64,000 bases of DNA from Punctularia strigosozonata HHB-11173 SS5 (lineage: Eukaryota > Basidiomycota > Agaricomycetes > Corticiales > Punctulariaceae): assembly GCF_000264995.1 (NCBI RefSeq), contig NW_006767443.1, positions 807,355-871,354 of the forward strand. The letters are read 5' to 3'. The position numbers were made by a program, and so were the translations under genes. The stretch's first letter is position 1, and each line of letters opens with the position of its first letter. This document shows, one piece after another, positions 4,206 to 52,206 of the stretch. Under the pieces are notes generated by a model that was not told where the DNA came from, ran no database searches, and saw only the letters and a list, made by a program, of their open reading frames with translations.

Positions 4206-7200
4206 TCACCAGGTCCGTCTCCTGCCCCCGCTGCCCCACTTCTCTAACAGGAACTCGGTCAAGAATTCAAACACCTCGCGATACGCCCCTCTCCGACTGA
4301 TGGAGTGATCGCTGCAAAGACGTCCGTGAGCGTCAACTTCACCATACGCGTCAGGAATGACCGGCACCACACACCTATCCGTGAACATCCTAAACCTGAA
4401 ATTCCGCACGTGCGCGCCGGTGAACATGTCGAGCAGGTGCGCCGAGTTGGCGTAGTGCACGTTGTCGTCCCCGCTCCCGTGCGCGAGGAGGAAGTCGGCG
4501 GCATGGAACGCGGTCACGTTCGAAATCGACGCGTTCACGTACCCCGCCGGGTTCTCGGCGGGAAGGCCCATGTACCGCTCGGTGTAGATCGAGTCTGGGA
4601 GTCCGAGTGACGAAACGGGGAATCAGCATTTGTCCGAGATGAAAGGATATGAATGCCCGCGCCGACATGACCGCGGCCGATGAGAAAACGGGTGGACTTA
4701 CCGTAAAGTAGCCAACTCGTAACGGGCTGCGGAAGGGACAGGATGATCAACAATACATCGGCGGTATACGTAAAAGCATGAGCACTCACCGCTACAGCCA
4801 TCGCGAGCGAATGCACCCCGGCATCGGCTTCAATCACTTTCGAGCTCATGAACCCACCATACGACTACCAAATGCAGAGCGTCACGTCAGCGCCCTCGTT
4901 CCATACGCCGCCCACCCCGGAACACACGCCACGGAGAACAAACGCAAACCGGGACCCCACTCACCCACCCCCAGATCCCGATCCTCCTGGGATCCACGTA
5001 CTCCTTCGCCGCCCACACCTTCGCCGCGCCCACCTGATCCTTCGTCTCCCAGAACCCGAGGTCGCCCTTGACCCAGTTGCGGAACTTGCGCCCCTTGTAC
5101 CCGGTGCCGCGCCCGTCGACGGTGACGACAATGTAGTCCATCGCGCACGCGAGGAACGTATGCCAGTCGCGCGAGAAGCGGCTGTCGACCATCTGCGAGC
5201 CCGGGCCGCCGTAAACGCGGAAGAGGACGGGGTACTTCGTCCGGCCGGAGTCATCCATGCGGGGAGGGCGCATCTCTTGCACGTTCAACTCTACGCGGAG
5301 GCGAGGGTTAGCACTGTGCAGAACCGGGAGAGGAACCGGTGCACCTTGTCCGTCAACTTCGATCGTCGACCGAATGATGATCGGGGCTTCGTACTGCGCG
5401 AGGGTGTTGTTCAGTCGCTCGTTGGTCGTTAAGGTGTAGTCGAATGCTGTCAGCACGATATTAACATACGGCTGGTTGGGAGATTAGGAGGAAGGACTGG
5501 ACTTACAGCTATCATTCGCGCTTCGTATGCTTTGCCATGGTACTCCGGGCCCTTCGTAACTCAGTAGGTGGAAACCACCTTCGGGCGAGAAGTCGGCGCT
5601 GAACCATGCGGGGGCAGCACGATCCGTGAGTTCTGTAGGCTTGACGGGCTTGAACGACGTTGACGACGCAGAGGAGACTGTGTTCAAGTCAGGTATGGGG
5701 ACGGCATAGATGTGGCGCTCTATCGAAGGAGTGGCGGCTTGGAAGTATCTGACATTTCCATGTCAGCGTCCGGGTTTCGGAGACGATATGAGAGGTGAGG
5801 TACGAACATTAACTTGCGCTCAACGTCGATCGCCTGTATACCGCCCGTGACCTCCCACTCGCCGGAGGTCAAGAAGATCGCCTTGCTAGCCGAACCAGGG
5901 TTGAAAAGTGCAATGTGGTTGTAACCTTCCGAAGTCGGAACGATATCAAGGTAAGCGCCATCGGAAGAGAGCGACTTGGGCAGAGGATAGATAGACTGGT
6001 CGGCGTCGATCCAGCCTTCGTCCCCTTGTTCGCCATCCTTGCCCAACTTCCTCACCACCTCGCCCCTGTTGCGCAAGCTGTTGTTCCCATCCAAATCGAA
6101 GTACACCACGCTACCGTTCGTCGCGGCCCTGTTCACCTCCTTGACGATCAGGCTGGAGTCGGCAACCCACGCGACCTCCTGTATGATCGAGTTGTTGGCC
6201 TCGATGCGGCCGTCCCAGTCGAGCTCAAGCGTCGCCTGCTGCGCGCTCCCGCTCTCACCGAACGCCGCGATGTCGAACACGTTGACGGAGACTAGCGGGT
6301 TCGGGTACCCGGGCTTGGGGTATTTCATCACGATCTCGCTCGTGTAGGGTACTACCTGATTGCTGTTCTCCGTCGGGTTGAAGACCGTGTAGGAGAACTC
6401 GGGAACGGACGTCTCGTCCGAGGTGAGGAACGCGACCTTCGACGAGTCGGGCGAGAACCAGAGCGCGAAGTCGTCAGAGAGCACCTCCTCCTCGTACACC
6501 CAGTCGGGCACGCCGTTGAATAGCGATGCGTTGCCCGTGCCCGTGACGCGAATCGGCTCGGCGAACTTGGAGGGTGAGGTGACGACATAAAGGTCGTTGC
6601 CCGTGACGAAGGCGATGGATTCGCCAGTGGGCGACCAAGTCGCGTAGGCGGTGGTGGGTGGGTGCGAGGGAGGGAAGAGGGGCCAAGTTGAGTGGTCCTC
6701 GAGGTTGTGCACGTAGTAGTTGCCGAAGGAGGAGTGACGCCATTGCTTGAGGGCATCGGCTTTGACGAGGAGGTATTTCATGTCGGCAGAGAGCTTCCAT
6801 TCAGAGTAATGCAGGGGATTGCCCCTGGCCTGGATGTCGTCTGAGTAGGCGAATGCGATTAACGCGGAGGGTTTGAGTACGTACGTCTCGGACGTTCTGC
6901 ATCGCGACCAGATTCGTGGTCGTGTTGGTCTTGAGGTCGACGAGGCGGATGTAGTTGTTCTGCGAGATGGCAAACACGCCGTCACCAGCTACAAAGTGGT
7001 CGTGTCAGTGCTCCACGCACTCCGGTGTCGAACGATCCTATGTACCTTCAGGAACCCAGCGTAGACTCTGTCTGTCCACACCAAACGTCCCATTGAATAT
7101 GTGGTCCATGGTAATGTGTTGCGTACCTGGCACGCGATATACAGTGCCGGTGTAAGACATGGCTGCAAGCCCGCCGATACCCGCCGCCAGGAATACCAAA

Positions 7201-14950: not shown

Positions 14951-17900
14951 TCATGCACCTCTGAGGTCGTCGTTGCTCGACTCTGAGGCTGTCGCAGGAC
15001 TTTTGCTACCTTCTTCAGCCTGCACGACGCGGGTCAGCGGCGAATGCATGTCGCGAGTGACGGCAGCCTTACCATGAGCTCGTGAATTTCACGAAGGAAA
15101 TCTGAGCAGTATTTTGCATTGCCGTCTAGTCCGATCTCCGTGAGCAATGACCGGGAAGTCGTGATATGCTCAACGGCATCAGCGTAACGACGCCGGTCGC
15201 GGTCGAGTTTCCCCATGTATATATGACACCAAGCGATCTGATAGCGATTCCCAATGCTGGAAGCAAGGTTAAGAGCATGTCTTTGCTTCTCCGCCGCTTG
15301 ATCATATTGCTCCTGGACACGATCAATCTCGCCTAATCTCTGCAGAGCATCTGTGGCACCATTCCGGTCTCCGATCTCAGAGTACACGTCGTGGGCCCGG
15401 GTGAGCTTCTCTATTGCCTGGGGGTACTCATTTTGCATGTAATGAACATTGCCCAAGCTAGACAGGCAATAAGCCACGCCCAGTCGGTCTCCAATCTCGG
15501 AGGACACGTCGTGGGCCCGGGAGAGCTTCTCTATTGCCTGGGAGTACTCGTGCTGCATGCGATAGACGTTGCCCAAGCTCCACAGGCAATCCGCCACGCC
15601 CTGTCGGGATTCAGTTTCGGTGTACATGTCGTGGGCCCGGGTAAGCTTCTCTATCGCCTGCGGGTACTCGTCCTGCATGCGATGGATGTCGCCCAAGCTC
15701 CACAGGCAATACGCTACGCCGTGTCGGTCTCCGATCTCGGAGGACACGTCGTGGGCCCGGGTGAGCTTCTCTATTGCCTGGGGGTACTCGTTCTGCATGC
15801 GATAGACGTTGCCCAAGCTCCACAGGCAATCCGCCACTCCGTGGCGGTCTCCGATCTCGGAAGACACGTCGTGAGCCCGGGTGAGCTTCTCTATCGCCTG
15901 TGGATATTCGTCCTGCATGTGATAAATATTGCCCAAGCTCCACAGGCAATTCGCCACGCCCTGTAGGTCTCTGATCTCGGAGGACACGTCATGGGCCTGG
16001 GTGAGCTTATCTATCGCCTGCGGGTACTCGCTCTGCATGCGATGGATATCGCCCAGTCGTCGCAAAACATTTGCCAGTTGTTGCCTGTTGCCGGAGCCAT
16101 CGTATTGCTCACAAGCCTTCTCGAAGTCCTCCCTTGCTGATCGGTAGTTGTTTGATCTGTACATGAGTTCACCCCTTGCGGTCAGACCTTCAGCGCGAGC
16201 TACACCTATTGCATAATGATCCCAAGCGGCAATCAATTGGTCAATGAGTTCGGTGGAGGGCCGCATGAATTGCTGGAAATGGCTGAACAAGAATGCTGCC
16301 CGCGCAACATCCGGCGCTGCGCCTTGTTTATGGGCGAGCTCCCACATGAACAGGGAGATGATATTGCCCGTTTCCGGGAGCAAGTTTTCGTACGCTGACG
16401 GGAACCTGTCGTCTCCGGGTTTATTGTTGGCGTGCCTGTCGATCCGATCGACATAATATCGCAGGACTGCTTCGCGTTGGCGCAGAGGAAGAAGAGGAAA
16501 AACAGGTTTCCGTGAAGTAGTAATATGGTGGTTATTAACATGCTCGCGGATCGGTGCAAGCACCTTAATGCTCTCGTTTTCAGCCCTGAAGGCGAGACCA
16601 GATCCAAGGACGGTGGCCAAAGCTTCGTCAACATCGTCGAAACCCAGATCCATCTCCTCAAGCTGCTCGACCCCCCCAAGGATACCGTCGGGTAAGCGAC
16701 AGATGACGGCAAGCAACGGGATCGCATCCGGATGGCGGCGCATTGGTGCGGACTGCAGCGACATTGATATAGAGACACGCATGCTGGTTTCGCGGGATTC
16801 AGAGGGGTGATTCGTCTTCAATAGCGAGGTCTTTTGTTTTTCCCAGTGCTTCAGCAGGCGGCCGCAGGTCGAGGATGATTTGAGTAGAGCCAGCAGTTTG
16901 ATGGCGAGGGGTAGACCGTCGCATTTCTGGAGCAGCAGGTCGAGATCCTTGAACTCGGACGGCGATGTATCGGGTTTTATGGACAGGAAGAGCTCGCGCG
17001 CTGGAATATGCCCCAAAGGGTCGAGGTGCATGACTGACCACGGGACGTCTCCGTCAGCAGGTGGGGCATTGCCTCGCATGGTCACGATCAATTGAAGTTT
17101 AGGGATGGCAGCCAATGTTCGGAGGACTTCCGTGAGTCTCGGCTGGATATTGGGTGTATCCAGTGACCAGGGACTCTCGAAGTTATCCAGCACGAGTACA
17201 ATGGGACGGCTCGCCGCCTCCAGACACGTCTTAAGATTTTTCATGGGATCACCGTTATCCGACGAGCTCTTTCCCATGGCCTGGAGGATACTTGCGACCA
17301 GGGTTAGGTCAGATATCACCGTGTCGCAGCGGACGAAGTAGCAGTCATTCTGGCCTTTGACACCTAAATCATCGACGACGCCAAGCGCGACCGATGTCTT
17401 GCCGATCCCTCCGGTACCCAAGAGGGCTATGTGCCGTTGTTGAGCGTCACATATTTCGCCGGCTGCAGCCCTCACGACGATATCTCGTCCGTACAGGCGA
17501 GGAGGGGCAGGGACGTATTGAAGGCTGACGAGTTTCCTTGCCTTTAGCGCATCTTATGACAGTATACTGATGAGGTCGACAAACCTTGCGGCCTCAGGTG
17601 CGTTGGCCTGCGCTCCCCGCGGACCCTCCGTTGTATCAGGGAGCCGTGCTCGTATCAGAGAGTGGATTCCAATCACCACCGAGTACACCTCGGTCAGGTT
17701 GGCCTGGATATTGTTCACGCCTGAGCTGGTTTCCGTCGCCTTCGAGTAAAAATGGTCCAATCGGGAGTTCACGTCTCCGAAAGCGGAGTGCAACGTCAAA
17801 TTGATATGGCTGACGACGACAGTCTATGTGATGTGAAGGAATGGACGGTATAAGAACTCGTGAATGGTATATGATCATTGCATCTCACCGTAAATTCTTG

Positions 17901-24379: not shown

Positions 24380-24464
24380 TGCCCCATGGCTGAGTTGGTT
24401 ACAGCGTCCGACTGTTATTCGTAACGGCATCGGAAGGTCGTGAGTTCGAGCCTCACTGGGGCAG
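24380..24464 (+). tRNA. tRNA-Asn (anticodon GTT) with 11-nt intron
   Basis: The acceptor stem TGCCCCA pairs fully with TGGGGCA, with discriminator G at 24464. The D stem is GCTG/CAGC, the anticodon stem TCCGA/TCGGA and the T arm GTGAG-TTCGAGC-CTCAC. The anticodon GTT occupies 24414-24416, A37 follows, and an 11-nt intron lies at 24418-24428, one base 3' of the anticodon as in eukaryotic tRNAs. The mature length is 74 nt before CCA. Confidence 0.95.
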
Positions 24465-26422: not shown

Positions 26423-28668
26423 ATGGCGAGCACCGTAGCTGACGACAAAGTAGTGGACGCCTCGAGCTTGGAGAAGGGCCCGGTCGACACCTCCTCAGAG
26501 AAGTCAGACCGTTATGCATTCGACGCCGCGGACCTCGATCGCGTGCAGCGAAGGCTCAGCCAGCGACACATACAAATGTGCGCATCTTACTACTTGTGGC
26601 CGGCCCGATTACGCTGATGTGCCTTCAGGATTGCTATAGCCGGCACTATCGGTGCGTTCGCCGGCTCCTAAACCGCAGCAAACTCTTAACGTGGTTGCTG
26701 GTTGTGTTACGCAGGTACTGGCCTGTTCTTGGGTGAGCGAAATCTCAGAGCAATCATTGTGTGGAGAGTGATTCATCGCCGAAGTCAGGCTCTGGCCATG
26801 CTTTGGCTGGTGCGGGTCCTTTGGGAGCACTACTGGCGTACGCTCTCGTTGGAACAACTGCGTATTCGTGAGTATATCTAATATCGTGATGGTTTCGTGC
26901 GCTGATAGACGAGCAGAACGCTGTGTTCCTTAGGGGAGATGACGTCGCACGCACCCGTCTCTGGGACATTCCCTCACTATGCTGCACGTTGGGTTGATCC
27001 TGCCTTAGGGTTCACGGTTGGATGGAATTACTACTGGTCGAACGCTATCGCCACACCGGCTGAGATCTCCGCTGCCACGATTCTGCTCACGTTTTGGGAT
27101 GATTCAGTACGTGCGAATCGTGAACGCTCCGTAACAGATCCGCTCATGCCACGCACAGATCAGCCACCAGTATGTATACACCGCCGTTTTGGTCGCTGCG
27201 ATCATCGCCATGAATTTCATTGGTGTTCGCTGGTATGGGGAAAGCGAATTCATGTTCTCCATTCTGAAACGTATGTCTTTCAACCTCCGTAATCCTCCTG
27301 TCAATGACAATCATTTCGCGGTAGTGCTTCTCATCACTGGCCTCATCATCTTGGGTCTTGTCATCGACCTCGGAGGGGCGCCCGACCACGATCGTCGAGG
27401 TTTCCGGTTCTGGGACGACCCAGGCCCATTCGCGAGGGCGGGGCTGGTGAGCAATCCCAATACCGACAAGTTCTTGGGTTTTCTGTCGGTCATCGTCCAA
27501 GCGGCATTCTCTTTCCAAGGGATGGAGCTTGTCGCCGTCGCAGCTGCGGAGACCGAGAGCCCGCGCAGGAACATCGCCACTGCGGTCAGGCGGGTCTTTT
27601 ACCGTGTCGTGATCTTCTATATTTTGGGAGTTTTGATCACGGGTGAGGAATTCATGCCGATGCACCGGAAGAGAGCTGACCTTGGAGCTGCGTAGGCATG
27701 ATTGTACCCTCGAATGACCCTACTCTCCTCCACTGTAAGTTCCACCTTGCAAGGTCTACGTTCCGAGGGGGCTAATGTGAGCATCAAGCGACCGGGACTG
27801 CTGCCGAATCCCCGTATGTCATCGCGATGCGACTTGCTAGCATCAAGGTCCTGCCGTCCATCGTCAACGCCGTCATCTTCACCTCGGCGTTCTCAGCCGG
27901 ATCCTCTTACCTCTATTGCAGTGCACGTATCCTGTACGGGCTCGGACTCCGCAGGCAAGCGCCGAAAATCGTCACCTACTGTGCCCCGAACGGCGTCCCC
28001 GTCGTCTCGGTCGCCATCACGTCGGCATTCGCGTTCCTCGCTTTCATGAACGCCAGCTCCGGGGCGGCTACGGTGTTTTCCTGGCTCGTGAACCTGACCA
28101 CCGTCGGCGGATTCTTCTCCTGGGGCGTCATGTGTTTGACTTACATCTATTTCCGTGAGTCTTGTCAGGCTCACCCCGTTTCTACGGTTGACATAGTCGT
28201 TTGTAGATCGAGGGATGAAGGTGCAGGGCATCGATCGCACGCAACTCGTATATCACAATCGGCTGCAGCCTTACATTGCCTGGTGGGGTCTGATCTGGAA
28301 CGTCATCTTCATCCTCATCAACGGGTTCGAGGTTTTCTGGTCGTTCAACGCGTCCGATTTCCTTACCGCATACATCAACATCCCGATATTCTTCGGTCTA
28401 TACTTCTTCTGGAAAATTTGGAAGAAGACCAAATTCTGGAAGCCTGAAGGTCAGTCGTCGGACACTATTTTGCCGTCCATGCTGTGCTGACAGGGCTCAT
28501 AACCATCGTGTAGAAATGGATTTTGTCACCGTTCGTATGGATGTCCTGTCTCGGGTTTCCTGCACTCATCGTACCATATCATAGGGCATCCCTTCAATAG
28601 AAGAGACGGAAACCCCGCTAGAGCCTGCACACACACTGGCACAAAAAATCGCGTCGAAAATATTCTAA
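26423..28668 (+). CDS. Amino-acid permease, YAT/AAT family (copy 1)
   Basis: Twelve exons (26423-26577, 26629-26651, 26715-26732, 26789-26867, 26917-27106, 27159-27270, 27325-27642, 27696-27734, 27789-28154, 28207-28449, 28514-28530, 28585-28668) give 547 residues. Twelve hydrophobic segments follow a ~50-residue cytosolic N-terminus. The first has the family signature IAIAGTIGTGLFLGSG, and the loop after it has GEMTSHAPVSGTF. The substrate-site region FSFQGMELVAVAAAETESPRR is also typical of Gap1-like transporters of the APC superfamily. The protein should be a plasma-membrane proton-coupled importer of amino acids. Copy 2 at 40366-42504 shares seven intron positions, and coding lengths match exactly between shared introns except in the first exon. 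Oxidase A lies 3.4 kb upstream and is divergent. Confidence 0.94.
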
Positions 28669-43391: not shown

Positions 43392-45091
43392 CTAATATGG
43401 TCGAACATGCGACAACCCTCCTACAACTAAGACGCGTTCTCGCAGCAGCTTTACTCGTCCGTCGTGGACGCAGTCCTTTTGAAGGGTGCAATCCTTGAAC
43501 GTGATCGATCGAACCGGGGACAACGTCAGGTTGCTGTTCGCGCGACGGATTCAGCGTGTCTGAGGGAGCATTACGTGGCCTACGGGCTTGACACAGAAGT
43601 CAAGCAGTGCGTCTATGCTGGAGTATCCGTCGTCGAGGTTTCGGATCACCAGCGTCGATAGATTTGGTAGCACAGGAGCGTTGACGAAGTGGGCGTTAGG
43701 CCCTGGGGGCACATCGCCGGCGTCGCCGGTTAGTAAATGGAAGAGAGAGTGGGAGATGGTCGGGCCAACGATGGTCAAGTCCCGGACATGTGGAGTATAC
43801 GGCAGCAGTGCGAGCCAATAATCGTAGGGATAATCAAAGGTTTCTACTTGCAGGACCGTCGGTTTGAGGGCAAAGATCCGGGAGGCCAATCTCTTTGTCG
43901 TGTTCGAACACATGGCTTGGTCTTCCGTCTCCAGGGAATAGATGAATCCATTGGTTGGATTGCGTAGACCGAGTTTGAGGCGCGCGAGGTATTTCCCTTG
44001 GCATATGCTGAGCGCGAGAAGTCCATCGGGATACTGTAAGGAAGGAAAATGCTGAACGCCAGCATCGAACAAGGCTTCGTATACCGAAGGCCGGTCTTCA
44101 TCAGTCATTGCTGTCGAAAGCGCGGCCACAGGTGGCAAGGCGAGACTTCGAATCAAGGCAAGGCAATCAAGGCAAGGCAGTCACGCCCTGTGCCCTGAAG
44201 CATAACGGAATGAATTGTGGATGAGTTGTTCACAAGATCGAAGTCCGCTCCGGCACTGGGCAACGTCCCGTCCAAGACGAGGACCACTAGCTGTTGAAAT
44301 TTACGTAATACTTCCAGAACGTGTGGCAAGGATGGTCGAGGCCCTTCAGATCAGTCGCGCAGACGTTATGCGAATTGAATAACGGTGCCATCCATGAAGC
44401 GAGCTCGAAAAATGTGAGCTCCTACGACTCGAGATGAGGCGCTACCCACGAAGCTAGCCACCGATGAGCCTCGGCTATAGTCCGCCGCGGCTGTGTCTTC
44501 CAGGTAAACGGCCAGACGTCTTAGTGAAGGCGCGGAGCCTGGCCCAGGGAAGCTGAGCAACTCGTTGAATGAGGCCGCGCCCCGAATCGTAACAGAAATG
44601 TCCAGCTCTTCGAGACGTGAAGAGTCCAGGAGGATTTTTCGCAACGCGTGCGGTCTTCGGGAGGATTTGGCTATGATTTTGACACAGCCAAAAATCCGGA
44701 TAGGGAATGGGAACTGATAGTACAGCCGTAGGGCCAGCGCAGGGCTCTCGATGTCCAGGACATTCCAGAGTGCGGGCGTGCGCATCGCAACGCGCCGCCA
44801 AAATGTGCAAACTTGCGCCGCGTTCGGGAATCTAGGGCGACGATGATCCCGATGCAAAGCCCGGGGATCAGACGGGATGAAGGAGAACACTTTGTAGAGA
44901 ACGTCTTCGGGAAGGCGGGATACGGGGAGGCCAACGCTGTACTCCTGTATGATGGTGGCCATCTCGCGTCCTATCCGTACCATTTCGTGCTGAAGGTCCA
45001 CAAATCGGCTACGAGAGGCGTTGGAGAGCGCAGAGCAAAGGGGGAAGCCCGCTCGGGATCTCCGAGCAACATACAGCATACCTTTGCGCAT
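43392..45091 (-). CDS. F-box/LRR-like protein (gene model incomplete)
   Basis: The N-terminal frame (44366-45091) has LPEDVLYKVFSFIPSDPRAL followed by FPNAAQVCTFWRRVAMRTPALWN, the typical mushroom F-box. Leucine-rich sequence follows, then a second frame (to 44156) with LKPTVLQVETFDYPYDYW and ALLDFC, and a third C-terminal piece ITFKDCTLQKDCV ending in a TAG at 43392-43394. The joins between these parts need introns that I could not place with consistent phase, so the gene may be damaged in the middle. The first exon may lie further up, in the frame 45158-45511. The expected role is substrate selection for an SCF ubiquitin ligase. Related C-terminal sequence occurs at 55900-56569. Confidence 0.55.
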
Positions 45092-45798
45092 TTGTTCCTG
45101 GAGGAGATCGCCATTGAAGTCGTCATTGTGTTATCTAACGCTTACACGTTTCTGAACTTACTCGATAGTTGTGCCCATGCTAAGAAATTGCAACCGGTCC
45201 AGACAGTAGGGACTTCCACTGATACGAATTCCTGTAGTAGAGGATGCAGGGATGAAAGAATTCCAGTCTCGAGACGGAGTGGTCCCCTCTTGAATTGTTG
45301 GTTCGCAAGCGAAACTAGGTTGTTTTGTGAGCGGCTGCAGGAGATGCTTTATAATTCGACGTAGTCTCGTCGTCGTCTCGTCGTCGTCGTCGTAGGCGTC
45401 GTCGTCAGCAGCAAGAGTTGCTAGCTCGTGATGACGCGGGGCCGATCCCACGTCGGTCAGAGCATTCAACGCGCCTGCTCGTATACATGCCGATCGTGAA
45501 ATGATATTCATGCTTCAGTTGTACCTGTCTCATTGACAGTCAAAGGATTATGCGAGGTATATAGAAAAGTACCCTATATGGAGTGCGAACTGCGTGATTG
45601 AGAGGACGCGTGGGTGGTGTAACTACTGTAAAAGAGAGAGGAAAGCCAAAGCCCAAAGTGACAGGTAACATGCATCAAAAAAAGAGAGAATTTAACGAGG
45701 AGCATAGGTAAAGAGCGCGAGGGGTCATTCAAACCGTTCCATTCCGTAACGCAGCCGTCGTGACATCGTAGAGCATCGTAGGGTCGGTCCGACGCCAC
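45092..45798. other. Intergenic with GTC-type triplet repeat
   Basis: A run of CGT/GTC triplets spans about 45362-45412. On the minus strand the same bases lie in an open frame (45158-45511) where they code for Asp. The frame could be an upstream exon of the F-box gene but has no homology support. Confidence 0.4.
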
Positions 45799-48700
45799 TC
45801 ATTGCGTCGGCATGGGTGGCGTAGGCGGTAATGGTAGCGACGGTGGTGGCATAGGTGGCGGTTGGGCAGCAAGCTTTCTCCGTCGCTCACCGACCTGCCA
45901 GATGACATCCTTGAGCTCCTGCACGACGTCCCCACCTGGCCCCCACTTTTCTCTGATTCCCTTTTCTCCTGCCTCCGCCTCCTCTTCCACCATCGCTATC
46001 CCCAACCCACTCAACCCCTTCTCCCTCTGCGCCTTTGCCAACTTGATCCTCTCCTCGCGAGACAGCTTCGACCGTTCCCTATTGAACGCGCCCACCGAGA
46101 CCGCCTCCGCCTCGAACACCTGCTCCGCGCCACCCAACACCCCTTCCTCCGCTTCCTCCTCAGGCGGCGCCGCGTCCTCGACCACCGCCACGTTCTCCAG
46201 CACCGCACCGAGCAGCGACCCAACCGAATTTTGATATTCGCCCGATAGGTGCCTATCGCTGTCGTCCGAGCCCGAGCCCGTATCGGGCGCGAGCAGCGGC
46301 ACGTCATCCGCGTCCTCGTCCGGGCCCGCACCTCCCTCGTCATCCCGCGCCGCCGCGTTCTGCGCCGCAAGCGCGTCTAACAGCCGTTCGCGCCCGCGCT
46401 CGCACTCCCGGAGCGCGAAACCGAGCTCGCGCCGGAGCCGGTCGTACGCCTTGAGCGCCGGCGCCTCCTGCGGCGGCAACGGCGAATGTTGGGCGCCCTC
46501 CGCCTCCGTCTCTCCTTCCACGTCCGATGACGTTCCCGACGCCGCGTCCGCGTCCGCACCGTCGCCGTCGCGCAGCGCCGCGACGCATCGCTCCAGGTGT
46601 GCCCTCGCATCCGCCAGCGCAGACGACATCGCGTCCACATGCTGCGCAAAGCGCGCCATATGGGACGGCATCGGCGCGAACCCGACCATCTGCTGCACCG
46701 TCCTCGGCTCGCGCCACGCCCCGGACGCCGCCCGGGCCAGATTGATAGGCGCGTCGAGGTCGAACGAGGTCATGCGCGAGTGCGGCGCGCTCGGCGTGGC
46801 GGGCGAGAGCGGCGCGACCGCCGGGCTCGGCGTGGCCTCCCGCATGCGCCGGCTCTCCGCGTCGTCGAGGGCTTCGCCCAGTCGCGCGGCGGCGTCGACG
46901 AACGTGGACGTCAGCAACGCCATCACGCTCCGCACGTCTTCCCAGTACGCCTGCGCCTCCGCGCCGCCGTCCCCGTCCTCGTCGTCGACAAACTGGTCGT
47001 GCGGTTCGTCGAACCTCAGTGCGAGCAGGTGGGCGCAGGCGTACCGCTTGGACGCGAGCGCGGCCTGGACGGCGTGGTGAAGCGCGTGGAGCGAGAGCGG
47101 GTGCGCGCCGCCGCGCTGAAGCGTCGTGAAGCGCGACGAGGATCCGAGCCCGAACGAGTCTCGTTCTCGGCCTGACGGCGGCGACCCGAGGCCGTTCGTG
47201 GACGACGAGGAATGCATACCGAGCGCAAGCGCCTCGAGCCCGCCGTACCGCCTCCGCCTCCGCAAGTTCATCGCCGCGGCACCAAAGTGGTCTCTCGGCG
47301 ATATGTCGACCGCGTCTTCTTCTTCCTCCGGATCGTCCTCGCCTCGCTCTTCCTCGCGGCCGACCGTATCGCGAGCGTGCGTGCCGTCCTCCTCGCGCAC
47401 CCCAGGCAGACCCCTCGCCGGCGTGGCAGGCGCGCTCTTCACAGATTCGTGCTTCGCGAGCGGCGAGCCTAACAACGCGCTCATATCCGACCTGTGCTTC
47501 TCCCGTATGCTCATCCGCTGCTCTCGGCGGTGCGGCAAGCTCCCCGACCGTGCGAGGGCACTGTAACTGCCGTTCCACGTCGATCGCTTGTCGATCGCGG
47601 GCGTAGATATCGGCCTTGCGCGTCGTTCGGGCGAGAGCGGAGAGAGCTGCGGCGACGGCGGGGCGTACATCTCCGCGAGCTGGGCGAGCTCCGCGGGCGC
47701 GGTGAGCGCCGAGAGCAGCCCGCGCACCTTCTCGCACTGGCTCGCGGTCGTGTGGAGCGAGGAGTGGAGCGCGACGCGCAGGGGAGAGAAGGTGGGCGAC
47801 ATGGAGGGGGAGGAGAAGGAGAAGGAGAAACGGTTGTGCTGCGAGTTGGAAAGAGAAAGCGAGGCGCGTTCGTCGGATTCGAGGATGGCGAGAGCTTCGT
47901 GCACGCATGAGTCCCAGAGGGCACCGGCGGATATGAGCTCGTTGAGGGCTTGGATGGTCTGTGGAAAAAAAGAATACCGTGGTGAGATGGCGCGTGTATA
48001 CGCGTAGACGTGGGTAGACATACGGAGGCGGTGGTGGATTGGCGGGCGCGCAGCTGCGCCTGGATCTGCCTCGACACGCGGACTTGCGTTTGCTGCAGCA
48101 ACTGGAGCATCTCGTTGAGTAGCACCTCCGATCGCTCCAGCACTTCTTCGACCTGTTCCGGCATCTGCAACAAAGACTCACAACACCGATCCAACAGACC
48201 CTGCAACAGAACCAACGCCCGTCCGGACTGCTCCGCCGTCCACTGGGCAAACTCAGGCGTACGCCGAACAAGCCTCCCCAGCGTCCACGGCATCTCCCGC
48301 AACTCGTCCGGATAGTATACGATCAGCGCGACGACGCCGCACGAGAGCGCGATCGTGTACACGTGCGCCGCCGTGGCGAAGCACGCCGTCGCGCTCAACG
48401 CCGTCGCCCACCGACCCCGATCTTCCTCATCCCACGTCGGCCGGCGGAACGTCGCCCTCGCCTGCCGCATCCGTGGATACCAGTACACCGCGCCTGCGCC
48501 GATCACCAAGGCGAGCGCGACGGGGTAAGCGTGCGCGGCACCCGCGAAGCAGGCCGCGGCGCCGAGCGCTTTGGTCCACCGATCGCGGCCTCGGTCTTTC
48601 CACGCGGGAACCCGGGCTCGGATCTGGCGCAATCGCGGCTGGCAGCGCGCGGAGAGGGCGAGCGCGAGGCAGAGGAGCGCGGCGGCGTGCGCGTGCGCGG

Positions 48701-50538
48701 CGCCCGCGAAGCAGGCCGTCGCGCCGAGCGCGGTCGCCCACTGCCGCCGATCGTGTTCCGTCCACGCCGCCACGCGCTGCCGGACCCGCAGCTGCAGCCG
48801 GTCGAGGTCGGGAGAGAAGTGGGTCCCCAGCGCGGCGGCGACGAATCCGAAGGCGATCCGGTACGAACGGAGGGCGGCCGCGAAGCAGGCGGCGGCGCTG
48901 AAGGCGCGCGCCCACTGGGCGCGGTCGTGCTCGTCCCAGGAGAAGGCGATGTATCGCGATGCGCGGGAGGGGAGCTGTGCGAGCTCGGGTTGGAAATAGG
49001 CGCCGAGGGCGAGCGCGAGAGAGGAGAGCGCGATGGTGTACGAGCGCGCGGCGGCGGCGAAGCACGCGGTGGACAGCAGCGCGGTCGTCCACTGATGGCG
49101 GGCGTGATCGTCCCATGTCAATCGAATTTGGGGCAACGAGCGCGTTCTCAGCTGCCGTGACAGGGAAAGGAGTTCCGGCTGGAAGTGGGCGCAGGCGGCG
49201 ATGGCGGCACAGAGGAGTGCGGGACGGTATATGCGTGCGGCGGCGGCAAAGCAAGCGGTGGCAATGAAGGCAGTTGCCCACTGCTGGCGGGCGTAGTCGT
49301 CCCACGTGAGCGTGAAATGCCAAGGGAGTCGTTGCAGACGTTGAGGGAGAGTGCGCAGCTCCGCCTGGAAGTAAATGCAGAGCGTGACGGTCGAACAGAG
49401 GAGCGAGACGCGGTATATGTGCGTGGCGGTCGCGAAGCACGCCGTCGCGGCGAAGGCTGTCGCCCATTGTTGCCGGGCGTGGTCGTCCCAAGAGAGGTGC
49501 GCGCTCCAGCGTATCTCTCGTAGCCTTCGAGGTACGGCCCGCAGCTCGGGCTGAAAGTAAACGCAGGCGGCGCCGGCGAGGCAGAAGAGCCCGACATTGT
49601 ACGTGCGCGCGGCGGCAGCGAAACATGCCGTGCAGACGAGCGCGGTGGCCCATTGCCGACGGTCGGGTGCGTCCCACGTGGGTGCGCGCGCGAGTTTCCA
49701 CGGTGGGGCGCGCCGAAGCCGTTGCGGTAGCGATCGAAGCCAGGGCTGGAAGTACACGAGGAGGGCGAGGGCGAGCGACAAGCGGGCGATGGCGTATGCG
49801 CGCGCCGCGGCGGCGAAGCAGGCGGTCGCGACCAGGGCGCGGGACCATTGATGGCGGTCGTGGTCGGACCACGACCAGGAGAGGTGAAAGCGAGGCGTGT
49901 TTTGGCTTCTGGTGTTTCGTCTGCTGTTACTTGAAGTTGCAGTCGCGCTTGCGGTGAAGTTTTGTGGGGTTGCATCTTCACGCGGTACAGGCGCATGAAC
50001 GGGCACGGGTGTAGGTAAGGTAGGCGTTTCGAAGCGTAGACGACCCGGTACAGGAGGTAATGAGGGAGAACGCGTTCGTGGCGAGTGAATGTGTGGAAAA
50101 GAGTGACGAAGGGGATGCGGGGAGGGCGTGATGGCGGTGGAGAGCAGCGAGGACGAGATCACGTCGTACTTAAAGCGTTCCGCGAACTCGGTTCGGTGCG
50201 ACGCCGTGAACGTGGACGCCGCCATGTCCTTGATAGCCTTTCGATCGTATATGAGCAAGAAAGAAGGTAGTGCGGAGCACGGAAGCACGACTGACCTCGA
50301 GGAGATGTAGGATCGTGACCGAGAGCCGGTACGCCTCGTCCACCTCGTCGTCGTCTAGGTCGTCGGGCACGAAGTCATGCGACGCGCCGGGCATGATATC
50401 TGCGCGCTCGCCCGTTTCTGCGAGAGCGGTCAACATGAAAGTCGGTCCCGAGGGTGTGACAGCGCCTCCACCATCAAAGCGCGCCGTACCTTTAAGATAC
50501 TCGCCCAGAGGATGGTCCTCGAACACCGCCTGAGCCAT
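45799..50538 (-). CDS. Vezatin/myosin-binding-domain protein with nine-fold repeated membrane module
   Basis: Three exons (50296-50538, 48024-50237, 45799-47958) give 1538 residues, well above the several-hundred-residue proteins I recall for this family. The N-terminus has DIMPGASHDF and, across the first intron, FAERFKYDVISSSLLST, both typical of basidiomycete proteins annotated with a myosin-binding (vezatin-type) domain. Residues about 198-731 are nine repeats of 54-66 residues, described separately. The rest has TIQALNELISAGALWDS, LRVALHSSLHTTASQC, HPLSLHALHHAVQAALASKRYA, and RRELGFALRECERGRERLL. These are the conserved C-terminal blocks, separated by long acidic and Pro-rich linkers. 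Vezatin-like proteins link membranes or organelles to myosin, and yeast Inp2 does this for peroxisomes. The role here is inferred from that. G+C is very high in the last exon. Divergent from the Kre9-like gene. Confidence 0.88.
48290..49890 (-). repeat. Nine tandem membrane-hairpin repeats within the vezatin-like gene
   Basis: Each unit reads roughly W-D-(D/E)-H-x-R-x-Q-W-A-x-A, then the core ATACFAAAAR-x-Y, a 20-residue hydrophobic stretch, and YFQPELRxLPxRL. On the plus strand the core recurs as GCGAAGCA(C/G)GC near 48379, 48547, 48707, 48882, 49060, 49250, 49434, 49618 and 49816, so spacing is 160-198 bp. Units differ in linker length but keep TACFA. Each could form one or two membrane crossings. 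The array lies wholly inside exon 2. Confidence 0.92.
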
Positions 50539-51154: not shown

Positions 51155-52206
51155 ATGTTCTCCCGCATCGCCGTCGCAACTTTTTTCGCCTCCGCCCTCC
51201 TCGCTGCCCGCGCGGACCCGAACCCGTCCGAGCCCGGCCCCGGCGACGTGTTCAACCAAGGCGCGAGCTGCCCCATCGCCTGGGACGCCGATGCGTCCGG
51301 CACCTGGAAGGAGATGTACATCGAGCTCATGACCGGCGACAACTTCAACATGGTGCACCTCACCAGTTGAGTCACGTTACTCTCTTCTCTCATCGTCGCT
51401 TTTCGTCTACGCCGATGCGATTGGCGCCCATGTCGTCCGGGGACATGATGCCGCCATCAGCGTGTGCCCCCATCAAATCAAATTGAATGTAGCATACACA
51501 CGTGCTGACGGGCGCTATTTGATTTTCCCTCTGTATAGCCGTGGCGAAGGTTGACGGGACCGACGCGAGCAACGCCTCCCTGACTTGGACATGCCCCGAG
51601 GTTCGTTCCCATCGTTACCACTCCCTCCCTCCCTGGATCTCCCGCTAACCTTCCTCCTCCCTCTCACACCAGGTCACGCCCAACTCCGCGATTTACTTCT
51701 ACCAATTCCGCTCCCCGGCGTCGTCCACGACCTACTGGACGACCCGTTTCGCGATCGCCTCCGCCTCCGGGCAGACTACGACCCCGACGAACGCGACCCA
51801 GCCCGGCACGGGCGACGCGATCCCCTGGGGCACCGGCGCCTTCGTCGACCCCACGCTCGCCACCGCCGCGCCCGACCTCTCCTCTTCTTCCAACTCCACC
51901 ACGGTCTCCTCCGGCGTGACCACCACCGCCACCGGAAGCGGAAGCGGAAGCGGAAGCGGCGGCGTGGCGTCGACCACCGCGTCTTCGAGCTCGGCGAGCA
52001 TCGCAGCGACCGAGTCCGGCGCCGTCTCGACCGTGCCGCACTTCAGCTCCACCGCAGGTGCCTCCGGCGCCGGCTCCGCATCCGCATCCGGCTCGGGCGC
52101 TTCCCCGTCGACGACCGCGGACGCATCCGCCGCCGGCCGCGCCGGTATCAGCATGCTCGCTCTGGGCGGCACCTCCGCGCTCGCGTTCGCGCTCCTCGCC
52201 CTCTAA
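51155..52206 (+). CDS. Kre9/Knh1-like GPI-anchored cell-wall protein
   Basis: Three exons (51155-51365, 51539-51600, 51673-52206) give 268 residues. A signal peptide (residues 1-20, ending ARA) is followed by an Ig-like Kre9/Knh1 N-terminal domain: VFNQGASCPIAWDADASGTW, MTGDNFNMVHLT, and after two introns NSAIYFYQFRSPAS. A 110-residue Ser/Gly/Thr-rich stalk follows, with GSGSGSGSGG. A small-residue cleavage region and a hydrophobic tail (LALGGTSALAFALLAL) end the protein, as expected for GPI attachment. The family supports beta-1,6-glucan assembly in yeast, and mushroom members are abundant wall and hyphal surface proteins. The first intron is 173 bp, far longer than the others here. Confidence 0.9.

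What the first reader, a model, noticed from the sequence alone, without database searches (positions are those of the whole stretch)
48290..49890. Nine tandem membrane-hairpin repeats inserted in a vezatin-like protein
The sequence shows nine diverged copies of a 54-66-residue unit built around TACFAAAAR and YFQPELR. They lie between the family's usual N-terminal block (FAERFKYDVISSSLLST) and its myosin-binding-type C-terminal blocks. The relatives I recall have only one short membrane region there. If each unit crosses the membrane once or twice, a peripheral organelle adaptor has become a 9-18-pass protein. Such a lattice could pack in the membrane, bend it, or multiply cytosolic contact sites. 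I know of no described protein with this design.
Basis: partly seen in the sequence, partly recalled or inferred. Interest (0 to 1): 0.88.

Follow-up and report, generated by a model that had tools for sequence, protein, structure and literature searches.

The report
Fungal protein with nine membrane-like repeats
A fungal gene encodes a large protein whose middle third is nine old, diverged copies of one greasy 60-residue helical unit, probably a many-fold membrane anchor; the repeats are real, but neither the proposed protein family nor the way the units sit in a membrane could be confirmed.

Summary
The repeats are real. A three-exon gene model on the minus strand (50538-45799, 1535 aa) carries nine tandem units of 54-65 residues (aa 201-737, window 49871-48261), all in one 2205-nt exon. 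Core identity averages 51%; left-out units score 58-88 bits, against at most 18 for shuffles. All 36 unit pairs have dN<dS: the units evolved as protein and are diverged, hence probably old.

Each unit has two nearly uncharged stretches of about 15 residues either side of a conserved Arg/His, then a linker that is mostly basic. Predicted insertion energies (0.7-4.5) lie in the range of the helices of an amino acid permease fragment in the window (1.2-3.3), but none is negative. Linker charge does not alternate, which favours units returning to the same side. AlphaFold gives one continuous 38-residue helix per unit, and one pass costs less than two in 9 of 9 units. Hairpin or single pass is open.

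The vezatin label is not supported: the Pfam model, present in the library, matches neither the full protein nor its parts. No relative was found, but no fungal collection was available.

The parts
50296..50538 (-). Exon 1 (aa 1-81): acidic N-terminal block, MAQAVFED...DDDEVDEAYRLSVTILHLLE
   Evidence: Splice reading and translation; N-terminal piece without Pfam match at E<=10
50229..50295 (-). Predicted intron 1, 67 nt, GTCAGT...CAAG
   Evidence: chosen by inspection, recovered by the intron scan; no RNA
48024..50228 (-). Exon 2 (aa 82-816): block DMAASTFTASHRTEFAERFKYDVISSSLLST, Pro/Ser/Thr-rich spacer, nine-unit array, start of the C-terminal region
   Evidence: an intron scan that recovers both predicted introns finds no candidate of 45-120 nt wholly inside the array
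48261..49871 (-). Nine tandem units, aa 201-737
49677..49871 (-). Unit 1 (aa 201-265)
49491..49676 (-). Unit 2 (aa 266-327)
   Evidence: the protein predicted in the single-unit model
49305..49490 (-). Unit 3 (aa 328-389)
49116..49304 (-). Unit 4 (aa 390-452)
48939..49115 (-). Unit 5 (aa 453-511)
48765..48938 (-). Unit 6 (aa 512-569)
48603..48764 (-). Unit 7 (aa 570-623)
48435..48602 (-). Unit 8 (aa 624-679), the unit least like the others (mean core identity 41%)
48261..48434 (-). Unit 9 (aa 680-737), highest Kyte-Doolittle peak of the nine (1.89); runs into the C-terminal region
47959..48023 (-). Predicted intron 2, 65 nt, GTATGT...CACAG
   Evidence: chosen by inspection, recovered by the intron scan; no RNA
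45799..47958 (-). Exon 3 (aa 817-1535 and stop): by eye a helix-like stretch, then acidic and Ser/Pro-rich low-complexity sequence, with a charged helix-like segment near the end (VVQELKDVIWQVGERRRKL)
   Evidence: only weak Pfam matches far below cut-off at its start (LMBR1, CENP-Q) and none in the 497-residue tail

Best explanation
A roughly 60-residue helical membrane module in a large fungal adaptor-like protein was duplicated in tandem to nine copies long ago, and the copies have been kept under selection at the protein level. Each unit has a polar cap (WDxxxRxQW), two nearly uncharged stretches of about 15 residues on either side of a conserved Arg/His, a Q-P-E-L break, and an arginine-rich linker. 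I think the array is a multivalent membrane anchor: each unit dips into the bilayer as a short hairpin or kinked helix and returns to the same side, so that the arginine-rich linkers face the cytosol, bind acidic lipid head groups and hold the long N- and C-terminal tails at the membrane. Shown: the repeats, their frame, their divergence and constraint, their hydrophobicity and the linker charge. Inferred: membrane insertion, same-side topology and the anchoring role. A link to the dynactin-assembly protein VezA is possible but only a lead.
For: Nine significant units in one open frame and one exon of the model. dN<dS in 36 of 36 pairs, ratio 0.20-0.88. 353 of 655 single-base codon differences are synonymous, 54% against 26% expected from a simple random-change model; the pairs are not independent. 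In the list of 30 best segments the 17 in the array cost 0.7-4.5 kcal/mol and the 13 outside it 5.1 or more. As a positive control, an amino acid permease fragment in the window has its three best segments at 1.2, 2.0 and 3.3, the same range. The 18 stretches have mean Eisenberg hydrophobicity 0.38-0.76 and mostly low moment (14 of 18 at or below 0.18, the rest 0.21-0.36), unlike a soluble amphipathic repeat. The eight inner linkers hold 3-8 K+R each, with no odd/even difference (means 5.75 and 6.0), while the 5-residue putative turns hold 0-2.
Against: No array segment has a negative predicted insertion energy. Only 4 of 9 units reach a 19-residue Kyte-Doolittle mean of 1.6. A TPR protein in the window has a best segment of 4.5, touching the weakest array segment. 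AlphaFold draws residues 3-40 of a unit as one continuous helix: mean pLDDT 84 but pTM 0.40 with 9 rows, and pLDDT 46 for three units. No Gly or Pro is conserved at the would-be turn. One long pass costs less than two short ones in 9 of 9 units. Net linker charge is uneven (6, 2, 1, 2, -1, 2, 6, 3), and linker 5 is slightly acidic.
Confidence: 0.5

Rival explanations
1. Each unit crosses the membrane once as a long helix, making a nine-pass protein with its ends on opposite sides.
For: AlphaFold gives one continuous helix 3-40 per unit, with pLDDT about 87-92 in that part, and the same in the low-confidence three-unit model. One long pass costs less than two short passes in 9 of 9 units, although any single span tends to cost less than two.
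Against: An Arg or His sits in the middle of the helix in 9 of 9 units. Linker K+R shows no odd/even alternation. The hydrophobic stretch of about 33 residues is longer than a bilayer is thick. Short peptides with shallow alignments tend to be drawn as straight helices (general knowledge).
Confidence: 0.23
2. The array is a soluble or peripheral helical-repeat scaffold, made of Ala-rich long helices, that binds partners or lies on the membrane surface without crossing it.
For: Marginal insertion energies, none negative; 22% alanine and 11.5% arginine in the array; AlphaFold gives two helices per unit, a long one and a second over the linker.
Against: Two stretches of about 15 residues per unit with few charged residues and mostly little amphipathicity, in nine copies, with energies in the range of permease helices. 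No match to a solenoid family in Pfam at E<=1 or to any solved structure by sequence or by fold at E<=10.
Confidence: 0.22
3. It is a true vezatin/VezA orthologue whose two-span membrane region was multiplied nine-fold, so that a dynactin-assembly factor gained a many-fold anchor. This is compatible with the best explanation and with the single-pass rival.
For: Same order of parts as VezA in the literature: N-terminal end, membrane region, C-terminal helix (passages of PMC11042379). A passage of PMC5309816 names a vezatin in Neurospora.
Against: PF12632 matches neither the whole protein, the pieces, nor a collapsed one-unit copy, although the model is in the library. The N-terminal resemblance is 3 identical residues of 7, one of them the start Met, plus one Phe/Tyr, and could be chance. 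A passage of PMC4265756 finds vezatin in only one fungus, a chytrid, of those it names and speaks of loss in most non-animals analysed.
Confidence: 0.4
4. The array is not translated: it is spliced out or is a gene-model error.
For: No RNA data were available, and the splice sites were chosen by inspection.
Against: Protein-level constraint among copies; continuous frame without stops; no short-intron candidate wholly inside the array in a scan that recovers both predicted introns. A single long intron over the whole array was not tested beyond this.
Confidence: 0.04

Closest known systems
VezA (Aspergillus nidulans) and vezatin, Pfam PF12632
   Same: N-terminal end, hydrophobic membrane region, C-terminal helix and disordered parts in the same order (VezA: passages of PMC11042379)
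   Different: VezA has two predicted transmembrane domains and 615 residues; here there are nine units and 1535 residues, and no match to PF12632
Reticulon/REEP/Yop1-type membrane-shaping proteins (mostly recalled; one abstract in the listing says they shape ER tubules)
   Same: If the units are hairpins, short hydrophobic hairpins with basic flanks would work like these
   Different: No match to such a family in Pfam; those have two hairpins, not nine tandem copies (recalled)
Tandem helical repeats of the solenoid type (TPR, HEAT)
   Same: Tandem helical units of similar length
   Different: The nearly uncharged, mostly non-amphipathic stretches do not fit; no family match

Membership tests
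Vezatin / VezA (PF12632) | Match to the Pfam vezatin model | tested here: not met
   No match for the full 1535 aa at E<=1, nor for the N-terminal piece, the last unit plus C-terminal piece, a copy collapsed to one unit, or the C-terminal tail at E<=10 (HMMER's filters drop most matches above about 0.1). Model present, 282 positions, cut-off 22.3 bits. A passage of PMC4265756 says a Dictyostelium analogue also lacks the SMART-defined vezatin domain, so such a test can miss diverged members.
Vezatin / VezA (PF12632) | Two adjacent transmembrane segments followed by a conserved region | tested here: inconclusive
   Nine pairs of marginal stretches, then a further region whose conservation could not be tested without relatives
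Vezatin / VezA (PF12632) | N-terminal end and C-terminal helix needed for function with dynein/dynactin | not testable with these tools
   Reported for VezA residues 1-20 and 563-615 (passages of PMC11042379); here only a weak N-terminal resemblance
Vezatin / VezA (PF12632) | Myosin binding | not testable with these tools
   Needs an experiment
Reticulon-type hairpin membrane shapers | Sequence match to the reticulon or related Pfam families | tested here: not met
   No such family among matches at E<=1 for the full protein or for any of the 9 units
Reticulon-type hairpin membrane shapers | Hairpins that enter and leave on one side of the membrane | tested here: inconclusive
   Linker charge favours one side; the structure model gives a straight helix and one pass is cheaper than two
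Helical solenoid repeats | Match to a known repeat family or solved fold | tested here: not met

The most novel reading that the evidence does not exclude
A fungal VezA-type adaptor, which in Aspergillus has one two-span anchor, has here become a nine-hairpin membrane scaffold: a single chain that covers and bends a patch of membrane and concentrates its cytosolic tails there, giving a built-in platform for motor-complex assembly.
Probability: 0.2. Interest if true: 0.75.

Novelty: new variant of a known kind. Interest (0 to 1): 0.5.

Why it matters
Multiplying a membrane-like module to nine tandem copies inside one adaptor-like chain is unusual as far as I know. Seven library searches, six of them with vezatin or vezatin-like protein among the terms, listed no paper whose title or shown abstract describes it (capped listings, so weak evidence). 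If the protein is VezA-like, it gives a natural test of what the membrane anchor of a dynactin-assembly factor is for. The divergence of the copies suggests that close relatives carry the array too, so copy number and function could be compared across species.

Tried and rejected
Searches for relatives: three protein or alignment scans and one DNA-pattern scan of viral contigs, one scan of prokaryote genome contigs and one tblastn of plasmids found nothing. These collections are not fungal, so the blanks say little. Solved structures by sequence: nothing for the array or the unit profile; only insignificant hits for the N- and C-terminal parts (best E 0.31 and 0.15). Fold search with the single-unit model: no match at E<=10.

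Artefact readings rejected: chance repeats; a DNA-level repeat or a gene in another frame (the sense frame is best conserved and the third codon position is the most relaxed); short introns inside the array; recent assembly duplication (copies 49-65% identical as DNA). A neighbour-by-neighbour similarity gradient was not seen (Mantel r -0.15, one-sided p 0.22).

Weak Pfam hits seen and dismissed: Exop_C E 0.1; LMBR1 0.025 and 0.069, CENP-Q 0.038 and TRIM_CC 1.5, all well under their cut-offs; in single units BTAD 0.0051, ThrE_2 0.028, PRT_C 0.16 and PhoQ_Sensor 0.2, one unit each, cut-offs not shown.

One search used wider patterns, recovered both introns, and found none wholly inside the array. 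The same call added the permease positive control, which the first energy runs lacked, and the one-pass against two-pass sums. After this I moved the soluble reading from 0.25 to 0.22 and the single-pass reading from 0.20 to 0.23. Three-unit alignment A2 had wrongly set unit limits and was not used.
Full report
What was checked. The finding names nine tandem units at 48290-49890. The minus strand holds an open frame of 947 codons (47511-50354). Reading splice sites by eye gives three exons, 50538-50296, 50228-48024 and 47958-45799, with introns of 67 and 65 nt and a protein of 1535 residues. The nine units lie at aa 201-737, window 49871-48261, all in exon 2. No RNA data were available. An intron scan that recovers both predicted introns gives 4 candidates of 45-120 nt in the gene and none wholly inside the array. 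An earlier, stricter scan would have missed the two predicted introns and is not relied on.

The repeats are real. Unit lengths are 65, 62, 62, 63, 59, 58, 54, 56 and 58. Core identity (47 columns) runs from 34 to 68%, mean 51%. A model built from eight units scores the ninth at 57.9-87.8 bits, against at most 18.1 bits for the best of 2000 shuffles of the same unit, in 9 of 9 cases. The full model finds the nine units; its next best match in the six-frame window has 5.7 bits.

The repeats are conserved as protein. All 36 pairs have dN below dS, ratio 0.20-0.88 (Nei-Gojobori). Excess identity over chance is 0.52, 0.56 and 0.22 at codon positions 1, 2 and 3. Of 655 single-base codon differences, 353 are synonymous (54%; 26% expected from a simple random-change model; pairs are not independent). 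Identity is highest in the sense frame, 51% against 37-45% in the other five. Synonymous divergence of about 0.7-2.6 suggests old copies; from that I infer that close relatives share the array. Neighbouring units are not significantly more alike (r -0.15, one-sided p 0.22), so a recent stepwise amplification is not indicated.

Anatomy of a unit. The consensus is WDDHDRxQWATALxATACFAAAARxYxxALxCxAxALxxYFQPELRxLPxRLRR. There are two nearly uncharged stretches of about 15 residues (columns 9-23 and 27-41), with Arg or His at column 24 in 9 of 9 units (Arg 5, His 4), and an arginine-rich linker. The array is 22.3% Ala, 11.5% Arg and 4.5% Trp, against 12.8, 8.4 and 0.8% in the rest of the protein.

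Membrane or not. Best segments of four other window proteins cost 4.5 (TPR protein), 6.0 (dipeptidyl peptidase part), 5.0 (weak mitochondrial-carrier match) and 6.2 (F-box protein). An amino acid permease fragment, a true membrane family, has its best three at 1.2, 2.0 and 3.3, so the array lies in the range of real membrane helices. No array segment is below zero, and only units 1, 7, 8 and 9 reach a 19-residue Kyte-Doolittle mean of 1.6. The moment is low in most stretches, with exceptions up to 0.36 in unit 6. Membrane association is likely; spanning by each stretch is not shown.

Hairpin or single pass. The eight inner linkers carry 8, 6, 4, 5, 3, 6, 8 and 7 K+R (net charge 6, 2, 1, 2, -1, 2, 6, 3); odd and even means are 5.75 and 6.0, a difference that all 70 partitions examined reach or exceed. 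The 5-residue putative turns carry 0-2. By the positive-inside rule this favours all linkers on one side, hence hairpins or in-plane helices. Against this, AlphaFold draws residues 3-40 as one helix and 42-61 as a second: with nine rows the mean pLDDT is 84.3 and pTM 0.40; with three units and three rows the pLDDT is 46.3, too low to use by itself. One long pass is cheaper than two short ones in 9 of 9 units. I keep the same-side reading slightly ahead, without calling it shown.

Is it a vezatin? The Pfam vezatin model PF12632 (282 positions, cut-off 22.3 bits) does not match the full protein at E<=1, nor the N-terminal piece, the last unit plus C-terminal piece, a collapsed one-unit copy, or the tail at E<=10. 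No fungal collection was at hand, and scans of viral, prokaryote and plasmid collections gave no relative. [quoted passage not shown] A primer printed there reads M-E-S-L-V-Y-E at the start; the protein here starts M-A-Q-A-V-F-E. That is a lead, not a test. A passage of PMC4265756 says a Dictyostelium vezatin analogue lacks the SMART-defined domain, so failing a model does not exclude kinship; the same passage names vezatin in one chytrid and speaks of loss in most non-animals analysed, which counts against, while PMC5309816 (passage) names a Neurospora vezatin. I put kinship at about 0.4.

Papers. Seen as passages: PMC11042379, PMC13251980, PMC7649786, PMC5309816, PMC4265756. All others only as search listings. 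None of what I saw describes a tandem array in a vezatin-like protein; the original VezA paper and a study of vezatin in axonal transport are not held.

Verdict. Interest 0.5, because the array is striking and testable while its distribution in fungi, the main question, could not be examined.

Noticed in passing
window 15037-17553 (-): NB-ARC plus TPR protein (NLR-like) with a 120-bp tandem repeat at 15365-16043, i.e. 40-residue units with 84% matches between copies, so probably much younger than the nine-unit array.
   Followed up: partly
window 48119-48901 (+), 48123-49160 (+) and 48427-49926 (-): Long open frames overlapping the array in other frames; probably due to high GC content (exon 2 is 67% GC), and the copies are less conserved in those frames than in the sense frame.
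   Followed up: yes
window 51155-52206 (+): Probable secreted Ser/Thr-rich protein with a signal-like start and a hydrophobic end, near the array gene; its first 71 residues gave no Pfam match at E<=0.01.
   Followed up: no
window 48261-49871 (-): Unit length falls from 65 in unit 1 to 54-58 in units 6-9, the difference lying in the linker, and the column-24 residue is Arg in units 1, 2, 4, 5, 6 and His in units 3, 7, 8, 9.
   Followed up: no
window 5723-6988 (-), 27776-28444 (+), 44369-45130 (-), 24380-24464 (+): Ordinary neighbours: dipeptidyl peptidase IV N-terminal region, amino acid permease, F-box-like protein, tRNA-Asn.
   Followed up: no
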